From an uncultured Bacteroidia bacterium (lineage in GTDB: Bacteria; Bacteroidota; Bacteroidia; Bacteroidales; Prolixibacteraceae): a DNA stretch of 33,646 nucleotides. The position numbers and the translations under genes are program-made. The notes under the pieces were generated by a model, which was not told the origin of the DNA, did no database searches, and worked only from the letters and a program-made list of their open reading frames with translations. Location of the stretch: the NCBI GenBank assembly GCA_903850335.1, contig CAINLJ010000148.1, forward strand, positions 1-33,646, in the 5' to 3' direction. This document shows positions 8,530-33,646 of this stretch, piece after piece; the stretch's first letter is position 1, and each line of letters starts with the position of its first letter.

Positions 8530-10575
8530 TCAATCCATCAACGCCTTTATTAAACAATCCTTCAAATCAGTATAATACTGAATATTAATCTTCGTGATCA
8601 TATCATCTGAAAGGTCGTTCAACTGTTTGCGAGCGTTCAGGGGGATAAGAATCGTCGTGGCACCTTTCTCGACAGATAACTCTGCGAGGTTTACTGCATT
8701 GTAGACCATATCAATCGAACCGCCCAGGTTAAGTTGACCCACAATGACCAACCCACCTTTGGTTCCCTTTTCGAGGATGGCGCTGCATAAAGCGATCAGG
8801 ACAGCCATTCCCATGCCATTGCCACTCTTTGATGCGTCAAATGCCCTTAATTGAATGGCAAACTCATGCGAACGCGGATCTCTGTCGCCAATCAGTTCCC
8901 TCGTTTTGCTGTAAAGATTTTGTTCGGCATATTTGACGCATTCCTGAAATTGAGGTGGTGACGGTTTATTAAGAATCTTGACACCTGATCCGGGACCAGC
9001 GTTAACTTCAATTTTATATAATCCGGTCGATTCATCCTGACCACCTGCATTCAGTGCCCAAATCTGGCCCGGAGGCAATGGATCTTCACCAATTGTGTTT
9101 TCGCTGTGGACCTCGGGTGTTGTGACGAATGTTTCAACACCGCTTTCTCCGATGCGATAACTAAAATGGGTATTCCGGAATTCCGCTGAACCAATTCTTT
9201 TTTGTTGTTCTTTCACCCTTCTTCTGTATTCCAAAGAAACCTTGATGGCCCATTCCAATAATTCGTCGGAGATTGGAGCATCCGGCCTTGGCTGCATCAA
9301 TTTCAGCAATCCGTTCATAGTCTTATTGACTGCAGTTGTATCACGTCCGCTTAATGCACCGCCGTAATCAATGCGATAGGAGACTGAAGAGATTCTGTTT
9401 ATGTCCCTTAATCGTGTCCAACACTCTGCCAGAAAATCACTGACCAATCCAAAATGACTCGTAAAGTATTGCTTATTTAATTTGGGGAAATCCCATCCCG
9501 GGACAAAAGCATGAATCCGGTCCATAAAAGCAGTATCATCGCGCATCTCCTGAGGGAGAGGACCAAACAAATGGCCGATTCGCTGCTGATGCTCCACATC
9601 TACCTCAAAGTTGCCAACCATTACAATTCCACCGTCTGCACGGATAGGTTCCTTACCCCGGCTAAACTCACCGCTCTCCATATATCCCTTCATGATGTTT
9701 ACGCCATCTTTCTGGTCAAACGAAACACCCGAAACCTCGTCAAAACAAACCACATCATACTTGCAAACAAGACCTCGTTCACCGCTTCCCATATTGACAA
9801 ACATCTTTGCTACCGTTGCCTTACCTCCCGAGACTAAATGTGAGTAGGGCGAGATCTGCTGATAAAGGTGTGATTTACCGGTGCCTCTTGGTCCAAGCTC
9901 AATCATATTGTAGTTACGTTCCAGGAATGGGATCATCCTTACGAACAATACATTTTTAGCTTTCTGGCTTAATTCCGTAGGTTCCATGCCCACGCTTTTG
10001 ATTAGGAAATCTTTCCATTCTTCAAGCGTAAACATCTCCCTACCTTTATAGAGAATATCCAGGACGTTTCGTTGCGACAATTGAATTGGCCGAATATTCG
10101 CAACTCCAAAAGGTCTGCCGCTATTTTCCTGGGCAATAGCTGCATCATATTCAAGCTCTACCTCAGCATAGAATCCACCAGTCAGCATCCGGTCGTTTGC
10201 ATTTACCGCTTCAGCTGAAATCCGGACTTTGTTGAGCATTAAACTCGGCAGGGTGGCCACATAACTGTCAGTGGCAGTATCCAGCTTTGCTGTAATGATG
10301 TCAATGATTTTAATAGAACCCTTCTCTTTCGCTTTCGACTTAAAATATTCCTCCTCCCCAGGACGAACGGTTCTGGCCTGGAGTTGCCGCTTTACAATTT
10401 CCAATCCTTCCTGAATCTCTGCTTCATCAGTAGTTGCACAATAACGCCCTAAAAGAAATTCGATGACATAGGTTGGCACGGGATAGGTTTTGCGGAATTG
10501 TTCCAGCAAATCCTTCCGTACAATAAAACCTTCAAAGGCCTTTGCCGCTAATTGGTCTGTTTTATCTAATTCCAT
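8530..10575 (-). CDS. brxL: BREX protein BrxL (AAA+ with Lon-like domain)
   Basis: A 681-residue protein with the standard BrxL layout. An N-terminal DNA-binding-type region is followed by a AAA+ core with Walker A GPRGTGKSH (228-236) and Walker B VVCFDEVSG (275-283), then a C-terminal Lon-protease-like domain (about 530-675). In type 1 BREX it is an effector ATPase that forms ring assemblies on DNA and is needed for phage exclusion but not methylation. Where Lon has its catalytic Ser (GPSAG-like) this protein has GNGMG (585-589), and the Lys of GGxK is replaced (GGSID), so peptidase activity is doubtful. It is full length and begins 11 bp after pglZ ends, indicating cotranscription. Confidence 0.93.
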   Translation of the reverse strand: MELDKTDQLAAKAFEGFIVRKDLLEQFRKTYPVPTYVIEFLLGRYCATTDEAEIQEGLEIVKRQLQARTVRPGEEEYFKSKAKEKGSIKIIDIITAKLDTATDSYVATLPSLMLNKVRISAEAVNANDRMLTGGFYAEVELEYDAAIAQENSGRPFGVANIRPIQLSQRNVLDILYKGREMFTLEEWKDFLIKSVGMEPTELSQKAKNVLFVRMIPFLERNYNMIELGPRGTGKSHLYQQISPYSHLVSGGKATVAKMFVNMGSGERGLVCKYDVVCFDEVSGVSFDQKDGVNIMKGYMESGEFSRGKEPIRADGGIVMVGNFEVDVEHQQRIGHLFGPLPQEMRDDTAFMDRIHAFVPGWDFPKLNKQYFTSHFGLVSDFLAECWTRLRDINRISSVSYRIDYGGALSGRDTTAVNKTMNGLLKLMQPRPDAPISDELLEWAIKVSLEYRRRVKEQQKRIGSAEFRNTHFSYRIGESGVETFVTTPEVHSENTIGEDPLPPGQIWALNAGGQDESTGLYKIEVNAGPGSGVKILNKPSPPQFQECVKYAEQNLYSKTRELIGDRDPRSHEFAIQLRAFDASKSGNGMGMAVLIALCSAILEKGTKGGLVIVGQLNLGGSIDMVYNAVNLAELSVEKGATTILIPLNARKQLNDLSDDMITKINIQYYTDLKDCLIKALMD

Positions 10576-10586
10576 AATGTTCAGTT

Positions 10587-12902
10587 TTATCCACCCACGG
10601 TGGTTGGTTTTTTATGAAGGATTCTTCCAGTTTCATCCAGGAGTACAATGGTTGCCGCCTGAGATTCTGCCTCATCGTTCACAACTACCGAACCTCTGTT
10701 GTCTGTTACTGATCTGTTTTTCGAGGCCACAATCGATGTGGTTTCATCGTTATATTTTGTCCGAATATCAAAAGTGACCCCTTTATTGGCCTCAACAGTT
10801 GTAACAGTGCACCGAAGGTTAACCCACTTAATGTCTTGAATCTTTGCTGCTGTTTTTGATCCTTTCTGATTTTCAATATAAAGGGTTGGGACCAGGCACT
10901 CATGGAGTGAAATACCGCCATGAGCATATTCCATATTGAGCTTAAAAAACGAGATCCCTGGGGCATAGGCAATAAATATGGAGGGATTCCAGCGCCAGGG
11001 AAGGTGCAATAAATCTGTTTTTGCCCCCTCCTTGATTAAGGCACAACGACCCCACCTTGTTTCAGTTAATCCTGCATACAATTGGGTCTTTGGTAAGCCA
11101 CCGGGTAAAAGCAACCAGCCGTGATCGGTCACGATTTTGATCCGTTTTACGCCTTGGTCAAAGGCATGACCGATCACATCCTGAACCTGTTCAAAAAGCT
11201 CTTCGATTCGCCTGACCATATCCGATTGCTCCTCGTGACCTTTCTTATCTATATCGCCGATCTCCTGCCAGCATTGAACCTCCGGATTGATATCACCACC
11301 CACGGTAATATAGTTACAGTTATTCAGTGTTAAGGCATCCCGGAAAACATTCGTCTGTATATCTTTTCCGGTCTGAAGCTGAGGACGAAATTCATTAATC
11401 TCGCTCACTTTCGATACCGATTTCGCCATTGGAGAAACTGCAGGCTTTGCCGTGGGAGTTAAGGAGGGAATGGCACACCACCCGGTCTCAAGTTTTACTT
11501 TATAATTATTGCTTTCCAGTCGTTTGCAAAATTCCTGAGCCAGTTCAAACCGAAAAGCGTCGACAAAAAGCACAAACAATTCATCTTCTGCCACTGCCGC
11601 CTGATTGGTGAAAATTGATGCATCTTTCGCAACAAGCTCCTGAAATTTAAGGGTGATCAATTCAATCCATGGCTGATAAATACATTTAATCAGGCTTTTA
11701 ATCAGGGTTTTATCCTGATCTGTTTTTACGGCAGCCATTGCCTTGCGCATCGACTGATCGGCTAGATAGCCATCCGTAATGTAATATTGCCTTAATTCAT
11801 CAATAGTGCCGGATGGGAGTGGTATTGTTGCCTTTGCCGTCATGCTGACTAAATGCTCCAGTACATTAGCCAGGGGAGCCTTACCAAGTTCACACCAGAC
11901 CCAATTTCTGCGAGCCCCATGGCTTTGTTCCAGGTTCTTTAACAATCCAAGAGCTTCAACAGGCAGAAGTTTCGATGCCTTTACAAGCGCTTTACGCAAC
12001 TCCTCCTCTTTTTTCTCATTGACTTGAGGCCAGCTCTCATCGGGCAGTGCAAATACTCCACTTCCCAGATCATCCGGTTTTGCAAGGCTCAGAAGTCCTC
12101 CAATTTCGGGATATTTACGCGTGGCAGTGGCATACAGCTGCCAGATATATTTCCAGCCATTGCGTTGCGACCCCAATTTTTCGGCGATGGCTTTAATATT
12201 GCGGTGATCGGGTGTAAAATCGTATTGTGACTGACACAGGCTTCCAAAAACATCCCTTTTCCCCTGATCCATATTTTGAAGGATGAAATCCCCCTTGCAC
12301 ATCCATTTTAAGATTGTCGGAATAATATCGGGGAGGAGTTGGTTGTTAAGATACTCTGCATCGATAATCGTCTTTCCATACAAAACCTCTCCATCCTGAA
12401 GAATTGTTGGCAAGGCTTTCTTCAAAGCATCCCTGGTCGCAGTATCTTTTGAAACTTTTAATCCGAGGCCGCTGTACGAATTCTCGACAAACGCAAGGAT
12501 CGACCACTCCTTCCCATTTTCCTGGGTAAACAGGGTCCCGGTATATTGGTATTCGAGCAATGGCTGAAATTCAAGACCGGCATGCTCCACATTTCTCAAA
12601 TCGTTTTTAGCCACCCCCGGAAGGTAAATAATTGGTGTTGCCTGTTCGTCCCAATCAGCTTCAGGAAGCGTCCGGGCCACCATGCATTTTAACCAGATGG
12701 CAGGACCCTGCTTCTTTAAAGGTTCATAAGGACCGAAAACAACCAGCTGTGGGATTATGCCTTGCAAGACAGGAATCACCTCTGTCCACTGCCGTTCCGG
12801 ATCGGGCCATAATATTACCTCAGGCTTCACCATGATGTTGCTGTTGTGCTGCTCTGCTTGCCTTAAAGCCAGAATTACCTTGTCAAATATGCTATTCTTC
12901 AT
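10587..12902 (-). CDS. pglZ: BREX phosphatase-like protein PglZ, type B
   Basis: A 771-residue PglZ of the length and pattern seen in type B proteins of type 1 BREX. Alkaline-phosphatase-superfamily motifs are visible: LFVDAFRFELA (445-455) with the nucleophile/metal region, VTDHGWLLLP (591-600) with metal-binding Asp and His, and EYAHGGISLHE (658-668) with the third metal-site His. PglZ is required for both host methylation and phage exclusion and works with PglX; its physiological substrate is not settled. The gene is intact and starts at the ATG at 12902. It lies 73 bp downstream of the AlbA/GHKL gene, so the accessory genes separate it from pglX. Confidence 0.93.
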   Translation of the reverse strand: MKNSIFDKVILALRQAEQHNSNIMVKPEVILWPDPERQWTEVIPVLQGIIPQLVVFGPYEPLKKQGPAIWLKCMVARTLPEADWDEQATPIIYLPGVAKNDLRNVEHAGLEFQPLLEYQYTGTLFTQENGKEWSILAFVENSYSGLGLKVSKDTATRDALKKALPTILQDGEVLYGKTIIDAEYLNNQLLPDIIPTILKWMCKGDFILQNMDQGKRDVFGSLCQSQYDFTPDHRNIKAIAEKLGSQRNGWKYIWQLYATATRKYPEIGGLLSLAKPDDLGSGVFALPDESWPQVNEKKEEELRKALVKASKLLPVEALGLLKNLEQSHGARRNWVWCELGKAPLANVLEHLVSMTAKATIPLPSGTIDELRQYYITDGYLADQSMRKAMAAVKTDQDKTLIKSLIKCIYQPWIELITLKFQELVAKDASIFTNQAAVAEDELFVLFVDAFRFELAQEFCKRLESNNYKVKLETGWCAIPSLTPTAKPAVSPMAKSVSKVSEINEFRPQLQTGKDIQTNVFRDALTLNNCNYITVGGDINPEVQCWQEIGDIDKKGHEEQSDMVRRIEELFEQVQDVIGHAFDQGVKRIKIVTDHGWLLLPGGLPKTQLYAGLTETRWGRCALIKEGAKTDLLHLPWRWNPSIFIAYAPGISFFKLNMEYAHGGISLHECLVPTLYIENQKGSKTAAKIQDIKWVNLRCTVTTVEANKGVTFDIRTKYNDETTSIVASKNRSVTDNRGSVVVNDEAESQAATIVLLDETGRILHKKPTTVGG

Positions 12903-20136: not shown

Positions 20137-23100
20137 TTATAGATTTGCCCTTGCCTCCCTCTTCTCCTCCGAACTCAAGTGCATATCATTATCCCTTACC
20201 TCGCCCCAATGACTTCCGGGAGGATTCTTTCCCCGATCGACACCCCATTTGATATTGAATTTTGAGCGCAAGACTCCTGCTTCGACAAACGGACGGATAT
20301 TCAGCCGCACCCCGTCATTCAGATCGGGGTCCCAGCCGATGGGTTGCTGACTGAGCGGTTTCCACCTTACGAAAATATCGTAAGGAGCCTCCCCCTGAAG
20401 GATAGCTTCCAACTTCTCTTTAAGTTTAAGGGCCGCACTGAGTAAACCCTCGGCGCCACTCTCTCCCGATTTCATTTTGGCATCGCACATACGAATCCAA
20501 TCGCCTAAATAGGTATAAATTAGCTTATTCAGATTTTCTTTGGTAAGCATGTGGTAATTGACTAATGCCGAAAACCCATCACTCCTCCCATCCCAGATAT
20601 TCCAGATAAACGGACGGTTTTGGAATAGTTTGCAGTGCTGGGAGAAGAATTCTTTACGCAGATAATCTTCCAGGCCGCTGGAAGCGGCTTGCACTTTAGT
20701 TAACAACTCACTAATGGTCTGATTAGTATATTCTCCCCCAAATACCTCCTGCAGGTAAGAGCGCAAACGGTCGGCGCCAGCCTCTTCGGCATTGACCGAT
20801 GGAATACAAAAAATCCCATCTTCATCGGTGAGGTGATCGAAAGCTTTTACTGCCTTTATTAACTCTCTGGCTTCGTCTGCCAATTCCATTTCTGTATCGC
20901 TTTCGGCTGGCCAACGATAACCCAAAAGTCGAGCTACAGCAACTTGCAATGGATTCTCTGCATTTATCGGATGTCCATGAAAATAAAATTCATCTGGGAA
21001 ATCAATATAAATTTTTGGTAATCCATTTGGAAATAATCTATTTGATACTTCAAGCCATTTGTCTAAATCAATCGAAACTCTTGAGAAATACTCATTATCA
21101 ATACTTAACTTCTGGTTAATTGCTTTTATCTTTTCATAAAACTCATCGGATTTAACAAAACTATATAGAGCAGCAATATCTTTTGTTTTTTTTGGTGTAA
21201 ATACGCTTATGTTATCATCAAACAATTCTCCATTATAAATTATGACATTTTTTGTAGAAACACGACTTACTGTGATTCCTCTTCTGTTCCAAGCACTTTC
21301 ACCTCTTAACCATGCACCAATACTTTCGCCTAGTCTTTGATGCAGAAATTCAATAAAATCACCCTCTCCATTCTGCCAATAAAAAATTTCTGTAACTCCT
21401 GAAAAAGGATTGTCAGGATGGATTGAACTACTTCTAAAAGCTTGCCATTCTTTTAAGATTTGAACTTCAAAAAAATTTCTAATAAATCTATTTCTATCAC
21501 CGGAACAAATACCCTTATGAAAATCGATTAGATTATTCAGCCTTATTTCATTCAAAGGATGCGCTGTTGAGAGATTTAATGCCGCACTTGGATTCATGAG
21601 CTGCTCCGACTGGTCAATCAATTTAAGTTCAGAATTTTTTAGTGCTTTATCTTTTGTAAATACTGTGAGTTTTTCTGAGACATCTAATCCAAAGAAAGGC
21701 TGCTCTTTCGAAGGATTCTGACGAGAAATAGATACTAAAATTGCTTTAACCACTTCACCCGTAATTTGACTAAAGGCCCCTGCCCCAAGTCTTGCTACAA
21801 AATGCCAAGTTTCGTTCTTTAATACCTTTTCTCGGAATTTTCTATACGTAGATAAAAAAAGCCAGTTTTGCGGCATTACGGTACAAGAAATACCACCAAT
21901 AAAATTTGATTTTAGCATCCTTTCTAAGAATACATTAGCCAAATCAGCTTTTGCTTCAGGATAATACTTTAATCCGTAATTTGAAATTATTCCTTTTTCA
22001 ACTAATCTGGTGTTCCCTAAATAAGGAACATTTGTAATCAGTAAAGTATATTTTTGTGCCAAGATTTCACCTGCTTTAGCAATTCCTGCTGCCATTACGC
22101 CACGTTCTACCATATCTTTATCAGCTTCGCCTTCCAGTGCTTTAGCCAAAACCGGTTGCAGTTGTTCAAAGCTGGCTGTAAAGGCATCGGCCCTCATCGT
22201 TGTAGGGTCCAACAAACTTCCCAGTTCAGGTGCCAATTGAAAATGGTCGTAAAGCATGCGCATTCCATTTTCCATACGGGATTTATCGACCGGGTCAGCA
22301 ATCTTATCCACTAATTTTACCCAATCCTCCACTTTACCTTTGGGAGCAATACCACTGCATGCGAGGTTCATCTCGGGCAACTCCTTGTAATGTCCGCAAA
22401 ACTTCCAGGCTGTAAGTGCCAGGTTAAAGGCGGCAATCTGGGTACACCGGGGATCGAGCTCCAAACCGTGGAGGTTTTCGGTGATTACCTTGTCGGTGGC
22501 TTCCTCTTTGGTTAAGCCCTCCTCGTACATTCGCAAGGTGGCAAAGACCGGGAATAAGGAGGCCACAAAATGGCCGGAGCCCATACAGGGGTCTAATGAG
22601 GTAACTTCTGAGGTTTTGTTTGGCCAACCTTCGAATTTGCCCGCAGCGGGTGTGCCATCCTCCAAAAGCCTTAAATATTCAAATTTTACTGGGGCAGTAA
22701 CGCCCGGATTGCGGCTTATCCACCATGCGCCAAGAGTATTGTCGATTAAAAAGTGAACCATATAAGGCTCGGTAAATAATTGTGTTACTGCCGGAAGTTT
22801 GGCCCCGTCAATTTTATCACCACTGGCATTAATTGAAGCCTTGGCATCGCTTTGCCAGAACTGGTAAACCCAGCCTAAGGCATCATCTGCGGTAAAAATG
22901 TAGCTGTCCAGAGCATCAATAATTGCTTCGAGTTTGATCCGGTCATCGGCTGCAAACTGGATCTGCATCAATGGATCATCGGTCCGGAAAATGGCCGGGA
23001 GCATTTTGGAAGCATAAGCCGCAGCGGCATCCCACTTGTCGATAAATCCCTCCTCGCGGGCAAGCTCTTCACACTCCTCCATCATTATGGCTACACCGGA

Positions 23101-23415
23101 AGGGTGCATCAACAACCCGTTACTCTCCAGAAATTTTGCAAACAACATCTTATGCCAGTTTTCGTAAGCCAGCTCGTATCCTAAACGATCGATCTGCTGA
23201 TTGCCTGTTGAGGGTAAATCATCTCCGAGTAATCGTGCCTTATGCCTTAACCTGTTGCGCAGAGCTCTCTGATCGGGGCTCATGTGTGAAAATGGTTCCG
23301 GATGGTCAACGGCTAGACTGTGCAAAGCATTTCGGGCACCTGTCTCTGCGAGTTTTCGCGCCTGTTTTACGGCAGTCTCCAGGGTGCCGCGTTGTTGGGA
23401 GGTTAGTACCGGCAT
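20137..23415 (-). CDS. pglX: BREX adenine-specific DNA methyltransferase PglX
   Basis: A 1092-residue methyltransferase. Motif I for S-adenosylmethionine is LDPCMGSGHF (about 274-283). The catalytic motif IV reads TNVPYLG (about 461-467), with NVPY in place of the usual NPPY. The N-terminus (RGTLETAVKQARKLAETGARNAL) and the long target-recognition C-terminus are typical of type 1 BREX PglX. It methylates the N6 of adenine at a non-palindromic site to mark self DNA and takes part in exclusion with PglZ and BrxC. It is the only intact BREX gene upstream of mcrBC. The repeat-containing small ORF directly precedes it. Confidence 0.94.
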   Translation of the reverse strand: MPVLTSQQRGTLETAVKQARKLAETGARNALHSLAVDHPEPFSHMSPDQRALRNRLRHKARLLGDDLPSTGNQQIDRLGYELAYENWHKMLFAKFLESNGLLMHPSGVAIMMEECEELAREEGFIDKWDAAAAYASKMLPAIFRTDDPLMQIQFAADDRIKLEAIIDALDSYIFTADDALGWVYQFWQSDAKASINASGDKIDGAKLPAVTQLFTEPYMVHFLIDNTLGAWWISRNPGVTAPVKFEYLRLLEDGTPAAGKFEGWPNKTSEVTSLDPCMGSGHFVASLFPVFATLRMYEEGLTKEEATDKVITENLHGLELDPRCTQIAAFNLALTAWKFCGHYKELPEMNLACSGIAPKGKVEDWVKLVDKIADPVDKSRMENGMRMLYDHFQLAPELGSLLDPTTMRADAFTASFEQLQPVLAKALEGEADKDMVERGVMAAGIAKAGEILAQKYTLLITNVPYLGNTRLVEKGIISNYGLKYYPEAKADLANVFLERMLKSNFIGGISCTVMPQNWLFLSTYRKFREKVLKNETWHFVARLGAGAFSQITGEVVKAILVSISRQNPSKEQPFFGLDVSEKLTVFTKDKALKNSELKLIDQSEQLMNPSAALNLSTAHPLNEIRLNNLIDFHKGICSGDRNRFIRNFFEVQILKEWQAFRSSSIHPDNPFSGVTEIFYWQNGEGDFIEFLHQRLGESIGAWLRGESAWNRRGITVSRVSTKNVIIYNGELFDDNISVFTPKKTKDIAALYSFVKSDEFYEKIKAINQKLSIDNEYFSRVSIDLDKWLEVSNRLFPNGLPKIYIDFPDEFYFHGHPINAENPLQVAVARLLGYRWPAESDTEMELADEARELIKAVKAFDHLTDEDGIFCIPSVNAEEAGADRLRSYLQEVFGGEYTNQTISELLTKVQAASSGLEDYLRKEFFSQHCKLFQNRPFIWNIWDGRSDGFSALVNYHMLTKENLNKLIYTYLGDWIRMCDAKMKSGESGAEGLLSAALKLKEKLEAILQGEAPYDIFVRWKPLSQQPIGWDPDLNDGVRLNIRPFVEAGVLRSKFNIKWGVDRGKNPPGSHWGEVRDNDMHLSSEEKREARANL

Positions 23416-23446
23416 TAGTTTAGGTCTTTATTTGTTTTATTATTTT

Positions 23447-23635
23447 TTATGAATCGGCAATTTTGAAATTCAGTCCAACAACCTGTTGAACTGAATCAAT
23501 CTGCCTGAGTGCAGCAACTTGTTGCACTGAATCTTTTTGTACATTTATCCTATTCAGTCTAACAACTTGTTTGACTGAATCAATCTGCCTGAGTGCAGCA
23601 ACTTGTTGCACTGGATCATTTTCTCCTTTATTCAT
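23447..23635 (-). CDS. Small repeat ORF upstream of pglX
   Basis: A 62-residue frame from the ATG at 23635 (a TTG at 23644 is less likely). It consists of two 28-residue repeats, each with VQQVAALRQIDSVxQVV, encoded by the 84-bp tandem DNA repeat. There are no Cys, membrane or catalytic features. Because the DNA itself is a series of palindromes, the coding potential may be incidental and the element may act as DNA or RNA. The lack of frame disruption across both copies is compatible with translation but follows automatically from an 84-bp period. Confidence 0.35.
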   Translation of the reverse strand: MNKGENDPVQQVAALRQIDSVKQVVRLNRINVQKDSVQQVAALRQIDSVQQVVGLNFKIADS

Positions 23636-23636
23636 G
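23469..23636. repeat. 84-bp tandem repeat, two copies, each with two palindromes
   Basis: Two direct copies (23469-23552 and 23553-23636) are near-identical over their first 60 or so bases. Each contains a 27-bp imperfect palindrome (23469-23495, 23553-23579; arms begin TTCAGTC and end ACTGAA) and a 21-bp one (23508-23528, 23592-23612; AGTGCAGCAA...TTGTTGCACT). All four share an ACAAC-YTGTT-type core. As RNA each would form a hairpin in the pglX leader; as DNA they could be protein-binding or recombination sites. Confidence 0.85.
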
Positions 23637-23686
23637 ATAATCAATTATTCTAAATTGCTAATCTCATATTTCCAACCAGATATTAC

Positions 23687-23832
23687 GGTGCGCTGCACCT
23701 TCATCTATTTACTTGATTTATAGCTACAAATATTGGGGTGCTCTGCACCTGCTTTGATGAGATATTAAGCAGCAGCGCTGCGACATATTTGTAGAAAAAT
23801 AATTACCAAAGCAGCAAAAGGTGCAGAGCACC
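23687..23832. repeat. Cluster of GC-rich short hairpins in AT-rich DNA
   Basis: Hairpins GGTGCGCTGCACC (23687-23699), GGTGCTCTGCACC (23737-23749) and GGTGCAGAGCACC (23820-23832) surround a perfect palindrome GCAGCGCTGC (23772-23781). The second and third are exact reverse complements of each other and have partly matching flanks (CTTTG/CAAAG, ATATTG/CAATAT), giving an overall inverted arrangement. The pattern resembles interspersed REP- or MITE-like hairpin elements. It occupies the gap between the small repeat ORF and the brxC remnant, which holds no gene. Confidence 0.75.
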
Positions 23833-23924
23833 GCAATATCCGTTCAACCAATATTTTAATGTTTAATAATCTTAACGCATCAATATTTAATTCTTATTAC
23901 TTTTTTACCTTTCCACTTCCATCC

Positions 23925-24389
23925 TTATTTCAATATTATAGAACTTGAATCCTTTAACAATTCTTCTAACTCAGTTTTTAATTCGGTGATGTAGGTATCA
24001 ATATCTGCCTGACTATTGATGGTTGTGCGGGGTAAACTATACGTTTTTGCTTTCGGCGCTGAAATAACAATTGCCTCATCCAATGCCGACTGAAACTGAC
24101 CGGGCAAAGCAGCTATTTTGGTATCCCATGCATAAAGACCGGCCTTCTGTAATTGGTTAAGAAGAGCAGTTGCATCCAACGGTTTTATCTCCGGCTTTGC
24201 TAAAATTTGGTGTTTAAACAGGATGGAATGCTTTTGCTCAGGGGTTAATTTATTAAAATAGATATTCTCCTGAAGTTCTTTCATTCTCAGATCGTACAAA
24301 CCAATATAGCTCTCCTTCAACTTATTCAGGGCTGTTTTCAACTTGTCTGTAAGCTCAGAAAGTTTATTCCGGTTCAGAATGCCTGGCAA
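23925..24389 (-). pseudogene. brxC: C-terminal remnant of brxC
   Basis: The 154-codon frame resembles the extreme C-terminus of BrxC. It has ALPGQFQSALDEA, then SAPKAKTYSLPRTTINSQAD, then a helix TYITELKTELEELLKDSS and a hydrophobic end SIILK. Full BrxC is a P-loop ATPase of about 1,200 residues; the Walker motifs and about 85% of the protein are missing. The frame opens only with a TTG, and an in-frame TAA (24395-24393) lies just upstream. So this is a 5'-truncated gene, not a small one. It sits where brxC belongs, upstream of pglX on the same strand. BREX activity without BrxC would be unexpected. Confidence 0.72.
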
Positions 24390-24405
24390 CTTTTAGCTGC
24401 TAATC
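24385..24405. other. Inferred recombination junction between brxC and helicase genes
   Basis: Two divergent genes, each missing its 5' part, meet here. Minus-strand BrxC similarity ends near 24389, and a plus-strand frame encoding helicase-like residues begins near 24400. The gene-free space expected between divergent promoters is absent. A deletion, or an assembly join, is the simplest explanation. Confidence 0.55.
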
Positions 24406-24485
24406 AATGCGAAAGTTATGAGAAACTTAGCCTGGTCTCTACATTTCATAAGGTAAGGAACTCAACAAACAATACCTTATCCACA

Positions 24486-27260
24486 TTGCTGGCATCCAGA
24501 ACCATATTTAAAGCATATCAGTATAAACCGCTTGTGAAGTTGTTAAATTCTCCGAATAGGAAGATTTTAATTGCCGATGAAGTCGGATTGGGAAAGACAA
24601 TTGAAGCCGGACATATTTTATTGGAATTGGCAGGGCGAAAAGAATTAAAGAACGCCTTAATCGTTTGCCCAAAATCGCTCAAAGAAAAATGGAAATTCGA
24701 AATGGAGGAAAAATTCAATTTCTATTTTAAAATCATGGGGAACCGAAAGGAATTAATATCAGCTTTAAATCACGCAGCATCCACAGGCGAAGATTTTAAA
24801 GTAATCGTAACCTATGATATGGTTCGGGTTAAGCCCCTGGGTCAGGACTATTCCGTTGAACAAAATCCCTTTTTACTGGCAATCGAATCCGCAGGCTTAT
24901 TTTTTGATCTGCTCATTTGCGATGAAGCCCACTACTTACGCAATATTAATTTGAGACACAGGGGAATAAAAAAAGTAATTGATGTTTCAAAAGCCTGCCT
25001 TTTTTTAACTGCCACTCCATTGATGACCGGAATTGAGAATTTATACAACCTGATAAAGCTTATTGATGAAAAGGCTTATTACAGGTGGGAAGAGTTTCAA
25101 AATGCTGTAAATATCAATAAACCTTTTATTAAAGCCGTCTCAAGGCTTAACAAAAATGAAAATTTGCTCGAAATACATGATGAATTGGTCAATTCGGAGG
25201 TTCCATTTTCGGTTTCGATTGGTGAAGAATTCAGAGTTGACGACAACATCAAAATTGGAGATTATTTTGCAAAAGATCCACTTTTTAATCGTGTGACCAG
25301 AAATCTGCAGTCCGGAAAATCTGATTATTCAATCTTAACCTCCCTTCAGAAAGACTTAACAGATTTAAATACCTTAAATCATATCTATTCCCGGACACGG
25401 AAAAGGGAAGTCACTACAGACGGGACATTTACAACTCGTACACCTCATAGTTTTATGATTCGCCTATCGGCTCAGGAGAGGGAGGCTTACGATGAGGTAA
25501 TAAATGCGTATGAAGGTGTTCCTTTGGCTTTAGTTTCGAAAAAACGGCAGATTTCAAGTTGCCTTCCCGCATTTTATAATACGGAAGAAGAAATCAAAAG
25601 TGGTATAACTAATTGGCATGGAAAGGATTCCAAATTTGACAAATTTAAAACTATTGTTGATGAAGTAGTCATAAAGAACAACAGGAAGCTCATTGTTTTT
25701 GCGTTTTTCCGAAGAACTTTATTATACCTGAAAAACAGGCTGGAACGTGAAGGAATAAAATGCATTTTGCTTTATGGCCCTACCGAAGATCGTCAGGCTG
25801 TCATTAACCAATTTAGAGATGATGCCAGTATTAAGGTATTCTTATCCTCACAGGTAGGTACAGAGGGGGTTGATCTTCAATTCTGCAATGCACTCGTAAA
25901 TTATGATTTACCCTGGAATCCGATGGTTGTAGAACAACGAATTGGGCGTATTGACCGGATTGGCCAGAAAGAAGATCTCATTCATATTTATAACCTGGTA
26001 TTAAAAGATACCATAGAAGAACAGATTTATAATCGTCTGTTAGTTCGCATCCATATTTTTCAGGAGACCATTGGTGACCTGGAGAGTATTTTGGCCGATG
26101 AAGATTCTTCATTCGATAAGGCATTTAGTAACCTTGAATTAGAATTGTATGGCAAGAAGCTTTCAGATGAGCAGCAAACCAGGTTAATTGAAACGATGTC
26201 GCTGGCCCTTGAAAGGCAAAAAAATGACCTCGATGAGATTAAAACGGAACTAACAGATTCGATGGTAAACGATGTGTTTTTTCAAAACGCCATCAACCAG
26301 ATCATTAAAAACAAGCAATACATCACCGAATTTGAAATCAAGAAATTTATTCAGTGGCTATGTGAGAATAAACTTGGCGGGATAATTTTCAAAGAGACAA
26401 ATCAATTTTTATATGAACTTGACTTCGTTAACAACAACGTAAGTATTCTGTTAAGCTTTATTTTTGAAAATATTGACCTTGAATTAAACCGGGATTTAAA
26501 AATCATCTATGGTAAATTCAGAAATTCAAATCTGGAAAAGCGAAAAATACTATTGACTTTCAATCAGAATTATGCCAGGGAGAACCCGGGTATAGAATAC
26601 ATCAATGCTTATCATCCCATAACTATTGCAGTTGCAAATTACATTGAAAAGCAGAAACTTCATGTCAACCAGGTTTTCCAGGCCCATCTTGCGGTCCACA
26701 ATGTTTCTGAGGATACTTTTCAGGCATCTGAGGGAGATTATTTAATGGCAGTTTATAAAATAACAATTCACAGGAAGAATCCGGTCAGTACGAAATCGTT
26801 TGATTATTTATACCCGGTCATTACTTATTTAGGTTCCGGTGATGGTATTCAGATTTTGAGTGATGATGATGCAGGCTTTCTAAATGGGAAAGTTCAACAA
26901 TATGCTGAGCGAATTGATCAATTTGCTGAATTTGAATCAGAATTTATTGACTACTTAACTCCCACATTTACTCAGAAATTAAGAGAGACTATTGATAAAT
27001 TCAAAGAAGAGGAAGAGATAAAAATAGAATCATTTAAAATCAGGTCGACCAAACAGATCGACCAATATTATTCCTATCGTATCGAACGTATAGGAGATCA
27101 GATTAGAGAGAATGTTTCAAATCTGAAAGTATTACCCATGTGGAAAAGCAACCTTCTTCAAATTCAGAACGAATATAAAGAACGTAAAGAATCAATTCTG
27201 GAGACCAGGATTGAAATGGATAACACCCTTGTGTCGATAACTTATTTTGAAATTAGTTAA
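24486..27260 (+). CDS. SNF2/DEAD-type helicase, probably 5'-truncated
   Basis: 924 residues from a TTG start. Superfamily 2 motifs of the SNF2/RapA type are visible: a YQYKPL Q-like element, Walker A ADEVGLGKT (about 30-38), DEAH (146-149), LTATP (174-178), and a helicase C-terminal domain. That last domain contains SSQVGTEGVDLQ, LVNYDLPWNP and QRIGRIDRIGQ. About 400 more residues follow, including a Glu/Lys-rich coiled coil. No in-frame ATG exists before codon 73, which is already past Walker A. The frame is open upstream with plausible coding sequence back to about 24400. So the natural start appears lost at the junction with brxC. It would be a DNA translocase; its partner is likely the actin-like gene 5 bp downstream. 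Confidence 0.87.
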   Translation: MLASRTIFKAYQYKPLVKLLNSPNRKILIADEVGLGKTIEAGHILLELAGRKELKNALIVCPKSLKEKWKFEMEEKFNFYFKIMGNRKELISALNHAASTGEDFKVIVTYDMVRVKPLGQDYSVEQNPFLLAIESAGLFFDLLICDEAHYLRNINLRHRGIKKVIDVSKACLFLTATPLMTGIENLYNLIKLIDEKAYYRWEEFQNAVNINKPFIKAVSRLNKNENLLEIHDELVNSEVPFSVSIGEEFRVDDNIKIGDYFAKDPLFNRVTRNLQSGKSDYSILTSLQKDLTDLNTLNHIYSRTRKREVTTDGTFTTRTPHSFMIRLSAQEREAYDEVINAYEGVPLALVSKKRQISSCLPAFYNTEEEIKSGITNWHGKDSKFDKFKTIVDEVVIKNNRKLIVFAFFRRTLLYLKNRLEREGIKCILLYGPTEDRQAVINQFRDDASIKVFLSSQVGTEGVDLQFCNALVNYDLPWNPMVVEQRIGRIDRIGQKEDLIHIYNLVLKDTIEEQIYNRLLVRIHIFQETIGDLESILADEDSSFDKAFSNLELELYGKKLSDEQQTRLIETMSLALERQKNDLDEIKTELTDSMVNDVFFQNAINQIIKNKQYITEFEIKKFIQWLCENKLGGIIFKETNQFLYELDFVNNNVSILLSFIFENIDLELNRDLKIIYGKFRNSNLEKRKILLTFNQNYARENPGIEYINAYHPITIAVANYIEKQKLHVNQVFQAHLAVHNVSEDTFQASEGDYLMAVYKITIHRKNPVSTKSFDYLYPVITYLGSGDGIQILSDDDAGFLNGKVQQYAERIDQFAEFESEFIDYLTPTFTQKLRETIDKFKEEEEIKIESFKIRSTKQIDQYYSYRIERIGDQIRENVSNLKVLPMWKSNLLQIQNEYKERKESILETRIEMDNTLVSITYFEIS

Positions 27261-27265
27261 TACCT

Positions 27266-28744
27266 ATGGGACAATTTGTAATTGGATTGGATTTTGGCAC
27301 CTATCAATCTAAGGTATGCATCAATCACTTAGATAAGATTCCATCTCTTCACGAATTTTTTGAGTTCAAAAATTCAGGTAATTCAAATTTGTTTTTACCG
27401 TCGTGTGTGTTTCTATTAAAAGATGGAACTTTCAGGTATGGAAATTATTCCGGTGACGATATTCTGCGAACTTTTAATTATTTCAAGATTGCTTCTGCTG
27501 AGGACCCTATTTTTCATCTTTTAACCGATTACAAAGAGTCCCTCTATAATTCAGCGGATAATTTTGGAGAATTTGCGCCTGAATTTTTATCTGTAATTTA
27601 CATCACATCAATACTCCTCGATGTAAAGGATTATTTAAAATTGAATGCTTTACCTGTCAAGAAAAAATTCAGTCTGGCCAGTCTGTTTGGAAAGAAGACG
27701 GAGACTGAGGCAGAACAGGTTGAATCTTTTGTCAGACTTGGCGTACCAACAGAATGGAATAAGAAAATAAACTTAGCCCGCCGCCGGAAGTTTGAAATGA
27801 TTCTTTTGATTTCAGAGATCATCCAAAAACACTTGGAATACTCACATGAGCGATATTTGGCCCTGAAAAAAGCAGAATTACTTGAAATGGTTAAGAGGGT
27901 AAATGACGACATAAAAAACTCCAAAGATAATTTCTATGATTTATTGGGTCAGCATAAAATTTCCGTCTCTCCTGAAAGCGCCGCCGGATTATTGTACCTT
28001 ATTCAAACGAAAAAATTAAATAGAGGGCTATATGCAGCTATCGACATAGGTGGAGGCACATCCGATATTTCTTTTTTTAACATAGATTTTGAGCATAGAG
28101 TTAAATATCTTGCTTCTGAGTCACTTATGGTAGCATGCAATAATATTTATCTGGGCTGTTCGAAAAAAGCAGATGTAAATCAAGTTGAGATTTGCAGGAT
28201 TGAGAAGGAAATTATTTCGCTGATTGAATTAAATGGATGCGAAAACGACTCTAATTATATTCGGAGTACAAACAAAGTAAAATCACTTATAAATAAGGAA
28301 CTAAAGATCCTATTTTGCGATCCTGTATGGCATGCATTAGTCCCTAAGTTTGAATATCGAAATGTGCTTAAAGCTTTTGATGGGAAGCCTTGTATAGTTT
28401 ATGGTGGTGGAATAAAACATCCAAAATTGAAATCCTGGGAAAAAATCTTGATTTTTGATAATGGTTCAACGCAAGTCAATTTACAACCGTATAGTGTCGA
28501 TAATTTTATTCCTGATCGTGATAAGGTCAAAAATCCATTCAATAAATGGTCGCAAGATTTCTATATGCTTGTTGTAGCTTTTGGATTATCTTATTTACGA
28601 CACGATTCTGAGGCTGAAGAATGGGATGATAGTCATTATGTTTCAACAAATGCAGAAAAGAAAATGATTGAGGTTCCTCATCCTATAAACGAGGACTATT
28701 ACATTTATGATGTGATTGACCGACAATGGTATGACAGGAAATAA
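27266..28744 (+). CDS. Actin/Hsp70-fold ATPase
   Basis: A 492-residue protein with the three nucleotide-binding motifs of the actin-ASKHA fold: phosphate 1 IGLDFGTYQSKV (residues 6-17), phosphate 2 AAIDIGGGTSDISFF (about 258-272) and adenosine CIVYGGGIKHP (about 375-385). A long insertion with a Lys/Glu-rich segment lies between the first two. It lacks an obvious DnaK-type substrate-binding domain, so it is not a standard chaperone. It begins 5 bp after the helicase stop, so the two are almost certainly cotranslated and probably act together. Pairing of a SNF2 helicase with an actin-fold ATPase suggests nucleotide-gated control of DNA remodelling, which is an inference. Confidence 0.82.
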   Translation: MGQFVIGLDFGTYQSKVCINHLDKIPSLHEFFEFKNSGNSNLFLPSCVFLLKDGTFRYGNYSGDDILRTFNYFKIASAEDPIFHLLTDYKESLYNSADNFGEFAPEFLSVIYITSILLDVKDYLKLNALPVKKKFSLASLFGKKTETEAEQVESFVRLGVPTEWNKKINLARRRKFEMILLISEIIQKHLEYSHERYLALKKAELLEMVKRVNDDIKNSKDNFYDLLGQHKISVSPESAAGLLYLIQTKKLNRGLYAAIDIGGGTSDISFFNIDFEHRVKYLASESLMVACNNIYLGCSKKADVNQVEICRIEKEIISLIELNGCENDSNYIRSTNKVKSLINKELKILFCDPVWHALVPKFEYRNVLKAFDGKPCIVYGGGIKHPKLKSWEKILIFDNGSTQVNLQPYSVDNFIPDRDKVKNPFNKWSQDFYMLVVAFGLSYLRHDSEAEEWDDSHYVSTNAEKKMIEVPHPINEDYYIYDVIDRQWYDRK

Positions 28745-28907
28745 AATCCCAAAAATAGGTTTGAATAACATTAAGGCTTTTGACTCGCAGAAACCGCCGA
28801 AAATTCTGCTCTAAAAATATTCTCGGATTTTTTCTGATCTGCCGAGACTACGACATCCCCTGTCTGACTCTGCTCCTACTTTTGACTCCTAAGCAAAGAA
28901 CAAGTTT
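28745..28907. other. Intergenic gap with weak hairpins
   Basis: 163 bp without a convincing gene. A 6-bp stem GCAGAA/TTCTGC (28787-28809) and CTCGG/CCGAG (28822-28846) could form hairpins, with T-rich runs nearby. These might end the helicase-actin transcript or lead the next gene. Neither is strong enough to call a terminator. Confidence 0.3.
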
Positions 28908-30038
28908 ATGGAGTCAGAAACTCTCTTATTTAAAAATTACTATGGTGGAAGACGAATGTCATTTGAATCAAACCAGCCTTCTGCGGATATCCCTCTGACA
29001 AATATATTTGTCGACAGATCAAGATCGTATCTCAATGAAAAACACTTGTTTATTGCTAAATTCAATCGGATCCCAAATTTTATCAATGAGATTAAAATAA
29101 ATTGCAGAAAGGCGAATGTCTGGTTTGCAAACAACTATGAGCAGGAAATCAAAGACTCGCATTTTGCACGGATTTATTACGGAGAAAAAAGAAGCGCTGA
29201 AATTGATGACATCTTTTATTTTCTGTACGATGATCTTATCGTGTACTTCGACACACAGAGTTCCATCGTCCGGTTTCTTTACCGGAATACCGATATTCTT
29301 AAGGTTGAGGCAATAATCCGGGAGATCAAAAAATTCAAGGAACGGAAAACCATTAACAGTTCAGAGATATCACTTCTGGTTAGCACTCGATCTGGAATTG
29401 AGACTAAAGTGATGAAAATCACCAAACCGAAACTAAGCATTGACGATAACTACAATGATGATTTTAAGCAAATCCACCAGACTATTCTGAAACGGCTTTC
29501 TAAGAAAAACGATAAAGGGCTGGTACTTTTGCATGGCAAGCCCGGTACAGGCAAGACTTCATACATTCGTTTTCTGATTTCATCGGTAAAGAAGAGTGTG
29601 ATTTTTCTTCCACCCAATATGGCTAATGCGATCACAAATCCGGATCTTATTTCGATTCTGATCGACAATCCCAATTCTATTTTTGTGATAGAGGATGCCG
29701 AAAACATCGTTGTCGACCGGGAGAAAAATGGAAACTCACCAGTCTCGGCTTTACTCAATATTTCGGATGGTCTACTTTCTGATTGTTTAAATATACAGGT
29801 AATTTGTTCATTCAATACTGACATCTCAAAGATTGATAACGCTTTAATGCGAAAAGGGCGATTGATTGCCAAATATGAATTTAAAGAGCTTGATGTACCC
29901 AAGGCCCAGGCGCTCTCGATGAAACTGGGGTTCAATACTCAGCTTGATTCTGAAATGACTCTGACTGCCATTTACAACCAGGAAGAGGCGGATTTTCAGC
30001 AAGTCAAAAGAGGTAATTCAATAGGATTTAAAGCTTAA
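28908..30038 (+). CDS. BCS1-like AAA ATPase
   Basis: A 376-residue protein with an N-terminal region of about 180 residues rich in beta and charged segments, followed by a AAA core. Walker A is GKPGTGKTS (about 210-218) and Walker B is SIFVIEDAE (about 255-263). Sensor 1 lies in VICSFNTD, and the arginine region MRKGRLIAKYEF is followed by a lid. The MRKGRL/KYEFKEL pattern resembles BCS1-type AAA proteins that are frequent in Bacteroidota. The start at 28908 is the first ATG after the gap. It lies 10 bp before the DnaA-like pseudo-ATPase, suggesting an operon. The substrate is unknown. Confidence 0.82.
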   Translation: MESETLLFKNYYGGRRMSFESNQPSADIPLTNIFVDRSRSYLNEKHLFIAKFNRIPNFINEIKINCRKANVWFANNYEQEIKDSHFARIYYGEKRSAEIDDIFYFLYDDLIVYFDTQSSIVRFLYRNTDILKVEAIIREIKKFKERKTINSSEISLLVSTRSGIETKVMKITKPKLSIDDNYNDDFKQIHQTILKRLSKKNDKGLVLLHGKPGTGKTSYIRFLISSVKKSVIFLPPNMANAITNPDLISILIDNPNSIFVIEDAENIVVDREKNGNSPVSALLNISDGLLSDCLNIQVICSFNTDISKIDNALMRKGRLIAKYEFKELDVPKAQALSMKLGFNTQLDSEMTLTAIYNQEEADFQQVKRGNSIGFKA

Positions 30039-30048
30039 ATAAAAAATC

Positions 30049-30744
30049 ATGGAAATCAATTTATTAGAAGAGTTCTTTAATAGTCATTTTAGAACTATGT
30101 TATTGGAAGGGTTCTTTAGTGACAACCCTAAGGAAGATGTGGAAATAGTGAAGCATTTCATTACGGAACAATGTTCGGTGGATATTTTATTAATTCGGAG
30201 TGATAGTGGGAATGGTGGGTCTCATTTATTAGTAGGTGCTGGAAATGATCTTCTAAAAAACGACATCAAATTTGTATGGCCAGGTTTTAAATCCTGCTTG
30301 CGACATAATCTTTCCAAATATTACAAGGATAGTTTTGAAAAATCCCTTCAGGATTGCTCTTTTTGCTTAATTGAATACCTCGACAATATTATTGAGCACC
30401 CTCCCTTACATCCAAATTCTTCACCGTCTCTTAGTTGGCTGCAAGAAATTTTAACCGGATTTATAAAAAGAGGCGGTAGAATCATTTTTTCGGCAAGCAA
30501 GGAGATCACTTCCAAACAGATTTCACTATACTTTAAGACTGATTCTGTTATTGAGGCGAATACTTCCTATCCTTCGTTGGAGACTCTAAAACTTATTGGG
30601 AAAAAAGAATATTCAGATGAATTTGTAGAGAAGTATGCAAAAGAAGCTTATTCGCATTCACGATGTGTTCGAGACTTTGAAAATTTTCTGATGAGTTTTA
30701 ACGCATTAATACAATTGGGAAAACCAATCAAATGGAAAGAATAA
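30049..30744 (+). CDS. DnaA/Hda-like protein with degenerate P-loop
   Basis: A 231-residue protein. The segment SDSGNGGSHLLVGAGNDLL (about 52-70) aligns by eye with the DnaA P-loop (GxxGxGKTHLLxAIGN), but the catalytic GKT is GGS. FCLIEYLDNII (about 106-116) is at the Walker B position, with E-Y in place of D-D. ASKEITSKQISLYF matches the sensor region of DnaA-type ATPases. There is no DnaA DNA-binding domain. It therefore looks like an inactive DnaA-family scaffold or regulator. An active relative lies two genes on (31767-32516), so the pair may form a mixed complex. The assignment rests on motif spacing only. Confidence 0.55.
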   Translation: MEINLLEEFFNSHFRTMLLEGFFSDNPKEDVEIVKHFITEQCSVDILLIRSDSGNGGSHLLVGAGNDLLKNDIKFVWPGFKSCLRHNLSKYYKDSFEKSLQDCSFCLIEYLDNIIEHPPLHPNSSPSLSWLQEILTGFIKRGGRIIFSASKEITSKQISLYFKTDSVIEANTSYPSLETLKLIGKKEYSDEFVEKYAKEAYSHSRCVRDFENFLMSFNALIQLGKPIKWKE

Positions 30745-30789
30745 CTTGGATTTTGACGAAACAAATAAATGAATAATTAAATTTTTGAA

Positions 30790-31461
30790 ATGGATATCAC
30801 TTTTATTTCAGATACCCACGGGTTGCATGGTTGGCTTAGGTTGAATGCAGGAACTGTTCTGGTTCATGCCGGTGATATTACAGAATATGGGACAGAGGAT
30901 GAAGGAATTGAATTTCTGGATTGGTTCTCTAAGCAACCTTTTACCTACAAGATTTTTATTGGAGGAAATCATGATCTCTTTTTGGAGGAGTTAACGCTTC
31001 GAAAGTTGAAGAAATTAATTCCTTCCGGTATTATATATCTTGAAAATAATGGAACAGAGTTAGAAGGAATTAAGTTTTGGGGATCACCGGTTACGCCCTA
31101 CTTTTTAGGTATGGCATTCAATGAAAGAGAAGGTAGGGAGATTAAAAAAGTCTGGAGCAAAATACCACTCGATACTGATGTATTTATTACCCATGGACCG
31201 CCTAAAGGAATTCTGGATGGTGGAATGGGATGTGAAGAATTGCGTCTTCGAATCGATAGCGTGCGACCTAAGGTCCATTGTTTTGGGCATGTGCATGGTC
31301 AGAACGGAATTGAAGTCATTAATGACACAACATTTATAAATGCTTCAATGGTAAACAACCTAAATCCATTCCAACATGAAGAATACAAACTAATTGGTAA
31401 GCCAATAATTTGCAAATATCCTTTACTGAATTCGGTTTACGGTAAAAAAATTACGAATTAA
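30790..31461 (+). CDS. Calcineurin-like metallophosphoesterase
   Basis: A 223-residue single-domain enzyme with all metal-site motifs: ISDTHG (residues 6-11), HAGDIT (26-31), GGNHD (58-62), THGPP (about 134-138) and FGHVHG (about 160-165). The motif order and size match the MPPED-type class III phosphodiesterases. It would hydrolyse phosphodiester or nucleotide substrates with two metal ions in the cytoplasm; the natural substrate is unknown. It is placed between the two DnaA-like genes, 45 bp after the first and 47 bp before the next small gene. In this context it could degrade a nucleotide signal or nucleic acid ends. No signal peptide is present. Confidence 0.88.
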   Translation: MDITFISDTHGLHGWLRLNAGTVLVHAGDITEYGTEDEGIEFLDWFSKQPFTYKIFIGGNHDLFLEELTLRKLKKLIPSGIIYLENNGTELEGIKFWGSPVTPYFLGMAFNEREGREIKKVWSKIPLDTDVFITHGPPKGILDGGMGCEELRLRIDSVRPKVHCFGHVHGQNGIEVINDTTFINASMVNNLNPFQHEEYKLIGKPIICKYPLLNSVYGKKITN

Positions 31462-31508
31462 AGAGGGATTCTTGATAGGTTTTATTGTCACACTTTAAAA
31501 TTATAGAT

Positions 31509-31751
31509 ATGAAAATTGATCCAAAAATCAAATACAAATCAGAAACCGGGAATTCACATTTTATTAAACTAGAATCAGAAAACATGGGATTTTCAGATGA
31601 TTCTGATGATATAAAGTATGCAAATTGTGTTTATGTTGGATTTTTACCTCCAGAATATCAAGGATCTCATTATATCAAAATTCCTACACCAGACTATGTT
31701 GAATGGCTCGAAAGCAAATTTGACAGCGATCTCAATCAATCATATTATTAA
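31509..31751 (+). CDS. Small acidic protein of unknown function
   Basis: An 80-residue acidic protein. I chose the ATG at 31509 (MKIDPKIKYKSE) over an upstream TTG at 31485. A compact fold is suggested by CVYVGFLPPEYQGSHYIKIPTPDYVEWLESKF, with conserved-looking aromatic and Pro residues. I do not recognise a family. It ends 15 bp before the second DnaA-like gene, so it is probably part of the same transcript and could be a partner of that ATPase. Confidence 0.55.
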   Translation: MKIDPKIKYKSETGNSHFIKLESENMGFSDDSDDIKYANCVYVGFLPPEYQGSHYIKIPTPDYVEWLESKFDSDLNQSYY

Positions 31752-31766
31752 CATATATATTACAAC

Positions 31767-32516: not shown

Positions 32517-32530
32517 AAAAAATTTTCCAA

Positions 32531-33328: not shown

Positions 33329-33426
33329 TAAATTTAAAAGTATGATATTTTTGTTCAATAGCGACAAAAAGATTTCTTACATTTAGAGCAACCTAATTAA
33401 TTTAACCTAAGTAATTTCCAGCCCCT

Positions 33427-33483
33427 ATGACTGCTGAAGAATTAGCACAAATCATTGCCAATTTCAATTGCCTTTTTAGATAA
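33427..33483 (+). other. 18-codon mini-ORF resembling the next gene's start
   Basis: It begins MTAEELAQIIANFN and stops after 18 codons. The next ATG at 33513 starts MNREEIEPIIEKYQ, a similar pattern (M-x-x-E-E-x-x-x-I-I). It may be a decayed copy of that gene's 5' end or a leader peptide; similarity over so few residues is weak. The remainder of 33329-33512 shows nothing else I can name. Confidence 0.25.
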
Positions 33484-33512
33484 GTATTTCATAACGCCTA
33501 AAATTAATTATT

Positions 33513-33646
33513 ATGAACAGAGAAGAAATTGAACCTATTATTGAGAAATACCAGGAGCTATCTATGAAAATAGAATCCTGCAGTGAACAGGAATATGAGA
33601 AAATTATGGAGCAAAATCCTGATTTAGAGGAAATCACAGATTCAGA
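33513..33646 (+). CDS. Unknown small protein, cut by window edge
   Basis: An open frame of 44 codons from an ATG runs off the right edge. The visible part is acidic and helical (MNREEIEPIIEKYQELSMKI, then EQEYEKIMEQNP). No family is recognised and the full length is unknown. Confidence 0.45.
   Translation, partial: MNREEIEPIIEKYQELSMKIESCSEQEYEKIMEQNPDLEEITDS

What the first reader, a model, noticed from the sequence alone, without database searches (positions are those of the whole stretch)
23925..24720. Head-to-head loss of two gene 5' ends: brxC and a SNF2 helicase fused at one junction
The sequence shows only the last ~150 codons of a BrxC-like frame (minus), closed by an upstream stop. 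It abuts a SNF2 helicase (plus) with no ATG before its Walker A and an open frame of plausible coding sequence running back to about 24400. Both losses point at the same ~15 bp. One event, probably deleting brxA, brxB, both promoters and both N-termini, explains all of it. This would make the BREX locus incomplete and leave both operons without native promoters.
Basis: partly seen in the sequence, partly recalled or inferred. Interest (0 to 1): 0.75.

Follow-up and report, generated by a model that had tools for sequence, protein, structure and literature searches.

The report
Deletion scar in a defence island
Two phage-defence gene clusters in an uncultured bacterium appear to have been joined by a recent deletion between short matching sequences that removed the front ends of both, an ordinary kind of genome scar that is easy to read here because a related genome keeps both parts unbroken.

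Summary
A minus-strand frame (23925-24389) carries only the last 146 residues of a BrxC; a plus-strand SNF2 helicase lacks its start; both break at 24351-24365. A same-genus genome (G094) carries both parents unbroken on different contigs: brxA-brxB-brxC on C77, and a 1019-aa helicase plus an Hsp70/actin-like gene on C3. C77 similarity ends at window 24365; C3 similarity (95.7%) starts at 24351; the parents share 12 of 14 bases there. Searches of the window's own assembly (95.6% complete) did not find the missing front halves. Best reading: a deletion, or other non-reciprocal illegitimate join, between short direct repeats in a defence island. It removed brxA, brxB, ~1000 BrxC residues, and 50 helicase codons with the start. 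Neither stump shows decay (helicase 98.3% identical, dN/dS 0.044), so the event is very recent, or the join is an assembly chimera; reads must decide. The genome carries a second, very different BREX. The scar is ordinary in kind.

The parts
23925..24365 (-). BrxC stump: last 146 residues of a BrxC (frame of 1158 aa in G094)
   Evidence: PADLOC BrxC profile 1003-1145/1146, E 2.4e-31; 79% identical to the end of the full BrxC in G094 C77
24351..24365 (.). junction / microhomology zone where brxC-like and helicase-like similarity overlap
   Evidence: C77 alignment ends at 24365, C3 alignment starts at 24351; 12 of 14 bases shared by the two parents
24351..27260 (+). SNF2 (DrmD/RapA-like) helicase without its first 50 codons; first usual start left is TTG 24486, codon 96 of the relative
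   Evidence: G094 C3 helicase residues 51-1019 matched; Pfam SNF2-rel_dom and Helicase_C; no ATG/GTG/TTG earlier in frame
27266..28744 (+). Hsp70/actin-like (ASKHA) partner gene of the helicase, 492 aa, open frame
   Evidence: 96.5% aa identity to the C3 copy; a similar gene directly follows the helicase in G094, G109, G005, G017 and viral contig L040; ASKHA assignment from motifs, recalled, with only weak DnaK matches (best E 0.15)
28745..28793 (.). right end of the block shared with G094 C3
   Evidence: similarity stops ~50 bp after the stop codon
20137..23415 (-). pglX of the broken BREX, 1092 aa, open frame
   Evidence: PADLOC PglX, 1452.5 bits
23416..23924 (.). 509-bp gap between the brxC stump and pglX with hairpins and repeats
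   Evidence: in 23300-24700, 5 terminator-like sites against 1.0 expected, 4 of the 5 in this gap; repeats; alignment to the G094 gap
10587..12902 (-). pglZ, open frame
   Evidence: PADLOC PglZ 6.2e-281
8530..10575 (-). brxL, open frame
   Evidence: PADLOC BrxL 6.5e-294; Pfam BrxL_N and BrxL_ATPase

Best explanation
The junction is the scar of a recent illegitimate recombination, most simply a deletion between two short direct repeats (around AGCTCAnnAAGTTT; at most about 18-20 bp, inferred). One repeat lies in brxC, about 1000 codons in; the other lies at codons 51-55 of a divergently oriented SNF2 helicase gene. Shown: the breakpoint, the missing halves, the unbroken parents in a same-genus genome, and no trace of the lost halves in searches of the assembly. 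Inferred: that the two operons lay back to back in one island before the event. Consequence (inferred): this BREX can neither methylate nor restrict, because BrxB and the BrxC ATPase part are gone. The helicase/Hsp70-like pair has lost the helicase's start codon, its N-terminal segment and any promoter upstream of it.
For: G094 (same genus) has both parents unbroken: C77 brxA-brxB-brxC and C3 helicase plus partner. The two alignments overlap only at 24351-24365, with 12 of 14 parental bases shared; 57 of 10,541,372 position pairs reach that. In the own genome the brxABC front DNA was not found, the BrxC profile finds only the stump and a distant second BrxC (the same profile gives 1327.9 bits with the C77 BrxC), and the helicase front and its C3 neighbours were not found except a 0.9-kb fragment on C230. 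No reciprocal product was seen. The 5 helicase homologues are full length. [quoted passage not shown] the BrxC N-terminus is needed for modification in Salmonella (PMC9009780, passages).
Against: No reads were available. No decay is seen in either stump: BrxC tail, 5 aa changes on the window side, 19 on the C77 side, 6 undecided (outgroup L006); helicase 3, 4 and 9 (outgroup G109). That fits a very recent event but equally a chimera. The junction was seen in no other genome: of 393 in the order, 4 matched, the window's own across the junction and 3 on one side only (a sample that did not list G094, two candidates scored per genome). No exact match in viral contigs (36-mer). In G094 the parents are not shown to be neighbours. 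On loss of function: in one Salmonella strain background, replacing brxB restored modification (PMC9009780, passage), so BrxB loss alone need not be fatal; BrxC's front is gone here too.
Confidence: 0.67

Rival explanations
1. The join is an artefact: two different molecules (possibly of two organisms) were fused by the assembler or during library preparation at a short shared sequence.
For: It is a fragmented assembly (284 contigs). The two sides differ in similarity to G094 (81% at the stump, 95.7% in the helicase block) and in GC (0.393 left, 0.355 right). No decay of the stumps. Junction unseen elsewhere.
Against: The shared stretch is at most about 18-20 bp as judged from BrxC relatives (inference), shorter than usual assembler words (recalled). 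A chimera should leave both missing halves on other contigs, but searches of the 95.6%-complete assembly found neither (for BrxB, without a positive control). GC of the window genes measured (0.30-0.45) overlaps that of five genes taken as core on C230 (0.37-0.45).
Confidence: 0.25
2. A mobile cassette carrying the helicase pair was inserted into brxC, and the rest of brxC with brxB and brxA lies beyond the contig's right end.
For: The block 24351-28793 is a shared unit, far more alike between the species than the one C230 contig stretch compared (69-81% in its five main matches), so it probably moved recently. In G094 it ends ~420 bp from a tRNA-Ser.
Against: The brxC front part was found neither right of 28793 up to the contig end nor elsewhere in the assembly. 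The cassette starts inside a gene, and no mobility gene was named next to its edges.
Confidence: 0.05
3. Both are natural short genes: a stand-alone BrxC-tail protein and a helicase that starts at TTG 24486.
For: Both frames are open and undamaged.
Against: The 3 other family genomes that match the BrxC tail carry it inside frames of 1147-1170 aa. The 5 helicase homologues seen start about 90-100 codons further upstream with a similar N-terminal segment. Residues 1-8 of the 154-aa frame are helicase antisense.
Confidence: 0.03

Closest known systems
Type 1 BREX locus (brxA-brxB-brxC-pglX-pglZ-brxL), in part on G094 C77 (= L004) and L006
   Same: pglX, pglZ, brxL and the brxC tail; tail relatives 65-79% identical
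   Different: brxA, brxB and about 87% of brxC are missing; McrBC, Fic and AlbA-type genes sit between pglX and pglZ
SNF2 helicase plus Hsp70/actin-like gene pair, as on G094 C3 and G109 C73
   Same: same two genes, same order, partner frame open
   Different: the helicase lacks its first 50 codons and start codon
DISARM DrmD / BrxHI / DpdE / RapA helicases
   Same: profile matches over the helicase core
   Different: the full-length relative scores far below the curated cut-offs (295 against 610 bits for DrmD); in the 18 window proteins scanned with PADLOC no neighbour has DrmA, DrmB or DrmC as best hit
Microhomology-mediated deletion scars in bacterial genomes (general knowledge, recalled)
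   Same: short shared sequence at a single join, with both flanks losing sequence
   Different: both parents survive unbroken in a same-genus genome, so both ends can be read

Membership tests
Functional type 1 BREX | brxB and full-length brxC present | tested here: not met
   brxC cut in the window; front part and BrxB of this subtype not found in the own assembly
Functional type 1 BREX | pglX, pglZ and brxL present and open | tested here: met
Functional type 1 BREX | phage restriction and host methylation | not testable with these tools
   needs wet work or modified-base reads
DISARM | DrmD at or above the family cut-off | tested here: not met
   295 bits against 610 with the full-length relative; the window copy hits PADLOC DrmD models at up to 390 bits, which are shown without a curated cut-off
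DISARM | drmA, drmB and drmC next to it | tested here: not met
   not the best hit of any neighbour among 18 proteins scanned; one DrmA-labelled model hits the helicase itself and a DrmMI model hits pglX below its PglX score
Microhomology-mediated deletion | short homology shared by both parents at the join | tested here: met
   12 of 14 bases between the G094 copies
Microhomology-mediated deletion | lost segments absent from the genome | tested here: met
   not found; the assembly is 95.6% complete, so absence is not proof
Microhomology-mediated deletion | parents were neighbours on one molecule before the event | tested here: inconclusive
   in G094 they lie on separate contigs C77 and C3

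The most novel reading that the evidence does not exclude
The broken locus is not dead but rewired: pglX, pglZ and brxL survive under their own promoter and draw on the brxA/B/C of the second BREX on contig C61, while the helicase, freed of its N-terminal segment and started at TTG 24486, still works with its Hsp70/actin-like partner. The lack of decay on both sides would then reflect continued selection, not recency.
Probability: 0.05. Interest if true: 0.55.

Novelty: new member of a known kind. Interest (0 to 1): 0.25.

Why it matters
It is a clear snapshot of defence-island turnover: an event small enough to read base by base that appears to silence two systems at once in a genome holding a second, very different BREX. 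It also warns that counting pglX/pglZ/brxL as 'a BREX system' would overcount here. If the join proved a chimera, it would be a caution about reading defence-island anatomy from fragmented assemblies.

Tried and rejected
A stand-alone short BrxC protein and a naturally short helicase were rejected by the homologues. Insertion of a cassette with the brxC front part further right: no trace in the own assembly. Reciprocal rearrangement: the reciprocal halves were not found (40 of 51 and 40 of 63 first-look candidates were scored). A wider search for the helicase in 395 genomes of the class gave only the window's own genome at E 1e-100 (two candidates per genome scored and the sample gave none of the four family genomes known to match, so weak as a negative). 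Plasmids: no match at 1e-60. Viral contigs: 10 stretches matched a pattern, 1 encodes a distant relative. The right part of the window (28740-33646) gave no match in G094, so G094 cannot tell its origin. sigma-70-type promoter scan: 6 found against 3.9 expected, uninformative. A scan for the Bacteroidota-type promoter (motif recalled) gave one weak site on the plus strand against 0.74 expected from shuffles, none upstream of pglX. Papers: the listings (titles and starts of abstracts) (13 papers; 1; 0; 0; 10 of 15 listed; 1) showed no such scar, but only three papers were opened, and of those only passages were seen; a case inside another paper is not excluded. (chimeric contigs, 6 listed) was seen as a listing only and is not used.

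Full report
What is there. The window is the whole of contig C148 of a 284-contig assembly (5.5 Mb, 95.63% complete). On the minus strand lie pglX (20137-23415), McrB-like, McrC, Fic and AlbA-type genes, pglZ (10587-12902) and brxL (8530-10575). Upstream of pglX, after a 509-bp gap, comes a 154-aa frame (23925-24389). On the plus strand lie the helicase frame (24486-27260), a 492-aa Hsp70/actin-like gene, an AAA gene, a metallophosphatase and a DnaA-like ATPase.

The stump. The 154-aa frame matches positions 1003-1145 of 1146 of a BrxC profile. Of 140 genomes of the family, 4 including its own have a match; the 3 others carry it within open frames of 1147-1170 aa. In genome contigs, 56 stretches matched a pattern and 3 encode a relative. 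Similarity begins at residue 9 in L004 and L006, i.e. window base 24365. Residues 1-8 are DNA identical to the helicase relative, read backwards.

The helicase. A full-length relative, 98% identical over the matched part, is on contig C3 of G094, a genome of the same genus. Its frame is listed from a TTG (1036 aa); I take the ATG at C3:14485 (1019 aa) as the start because it lines up with the homologues. The window has residues 51-1019 and no ATG, GTG or TTG in frame before TTG 24486, which is residue 96. The 5 homologues seen (G094, G109, G017, G005 and viral contig L040) are full length at this end, starting about 90-100 codons upstream of the matching point with a similar N-terminal segment, and each is followed directly by an Hsp70/actin-like gene. 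The script misread G005 (wrong strand), so its start is taken and it is not in that alignment.

The junction. BLASTN of the window against G094 C77 and the first 40 kb of C3 gives alignments that overlap at 24351-24365: C77 to 24365 (81.4%), C3 from 24351 to 28793 (95.7%). The two parents, as seen in G094, share 12 of 14 bases there (AGCTCAnnAAGTTT); of 10,541,372 position pairs between the two genes, 57 reach that level. The true length in this species is unknown; from BrxC relatives it is at most about 18-20 bases (inference). The repeats lie in the same orientation on the plus strand, as a deletion between direct repeats requires.

What is missing. A DNA search of the own genome with the C77 stretch holding brxA, brxB and the front of brxC gave one match, to the hydrolase gene at the far end of the query, on C19. 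The BrxC profile found the stump and one distant BrxC on C61; that profile is the one the C77 BrxC fits best. A BrxB protein search found nothing; it did not even find the BrxB on C61, and the tool warns that such an empty answer is weak. The C3 stretch upstream of the helicase found only a 0.9-kb piece on C230. So neither lost half and no reciprocal product was found, which fits a deletion better than a rearrangement or a chimera, within the limits of 95.6% completeness.

How old. Between window and C3 the helicase is 98.3% identical in protein over 954 codons, dN 0.0075, dS 0.17, dN/dS 0.044; with G109 as outgroup 3 changes fall on the window side, 4 on the C3 side and 9 are undecided (0, 2 and 2 with G017 added). 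Had the window copy drifted freely for its half of that time, well over a hundred replacements would be expected (own arithmetic). The partner gene shows 3, 4 and 10, dN/dS 0.094. The BrxC tail shows 5 changes on the window side, 19 on the C77 side and 6 undecided with L006 as outgroup (0, 11, 1 with L006 and L005; 1, 13, 2 with L006 and L009). Neither stump is decaying: the break is very recent, or it is an artefact, or the pieces are still selected. The pglX comparison (73, 89, 108; dN/dS 0.207) is less reliable because the G094 pglX carries an insertion.

Horizontal history. One stretch of ordinary genes (own C230) is 69-81% identical between the two genomes in its five main matches of 11 listed, against 95.7% for the helicase block and 78-92% for the matching BREX-side pieces, Fic and AlbA-type genes included. 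Both halves therefore probably moved between the species, the helicase block more recently (inference from one stretch). In G094 the block ends near a tRNA-Ser; the own C230 island also lies near a tRNA-Ser.

Consequences. [quoted passage not shown] The same passages hold exceptions: a Salmonella strain that regains modification when brxB is replaced, and an Escherichia fergusonii BREX with intermediate restriction when BrxC keeps only its first 551 residues; neither lacks the BrxC front as this locus does. The locus should thus be inactive (inference). The genome carries a second BREX on C61: brxA, brxB, brxC (1163 aa), pglX and pglZ by profile, and a brxL-like frame by similarity to the window's brxL and by position, not profile-scanned. 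Its BrxC is 21% identical over 521 aligned columns to the G094 BrxC, so help in trans is unlikely.

The promoter claim is not shown for pglX: it stands 509 bp from the stump behind hairpins; in Salmonella a predicted terminator with incomplete termination lies between brxC and pglX. The claim that one deletion did it all is the simplest reading, but the parents are not shown to be neighbours in G094.

Verdict. A real pattern in the assembled sequence, most likely a recent microhomology deletion scar in a defence island (0.67), possibly a chimera (0.25). Ordinary in kind, well documented here, and to be decided by reads.

Noticed in passing
window 24351-28744; L015:14485-19028; L020:2956-7552; L013; L014; L040: A SNF2 helicase with an N-terminal segment is followed directly by an Hsp70/actin-like gene in five sources besides the window. 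The partner has only weak library hits, and one paper search for such a pair listed nothing.
   Followed up: partly
L019 and L025 (own contig C61): A second BREX of a very different subtype in the same genome, with all six genes apparently present (brxL by similarity only).
   Followed up: partly
L004:11185-15327: The G094 pglX frame is 1381 aa long (stop to stop) and carries an IS200-like (Y1_Tnp) transposase match in frame, residues 419-495.
   Followed up: partly
L023:11307-11666 and L015:8705-9280: A mirror pair of truncations: the kinase is 119 aa on own C230 but 575 aa on G094 C3, while the neighbouring DUF499 protein is 1094 aa on C230 but only about its last 180 aa remain on C3. Another trace of island erosion near a tRNA-Ser.
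   Followed up: partly
window 23468-23840: Tandem and inverted repeats between brxC and pglX, largely preserved in G094; the 20-mer GGTGCAGAGCACCGCAATAT occurs at one other place in the genome (C158).
   Followed up: partly
window 2791-4515 (-): Reverse transcriptase of 574 aa, best matched by retron-type XI/XII models.
   Followed up: no
window 4898-5911 (+): WYL-domain gene on the opposite strand, beyond the brxL end of the BREX genes.
   Followed up: no
window 1-1104 (-): Transposase frame running off the left contig end.
   Followed up: no
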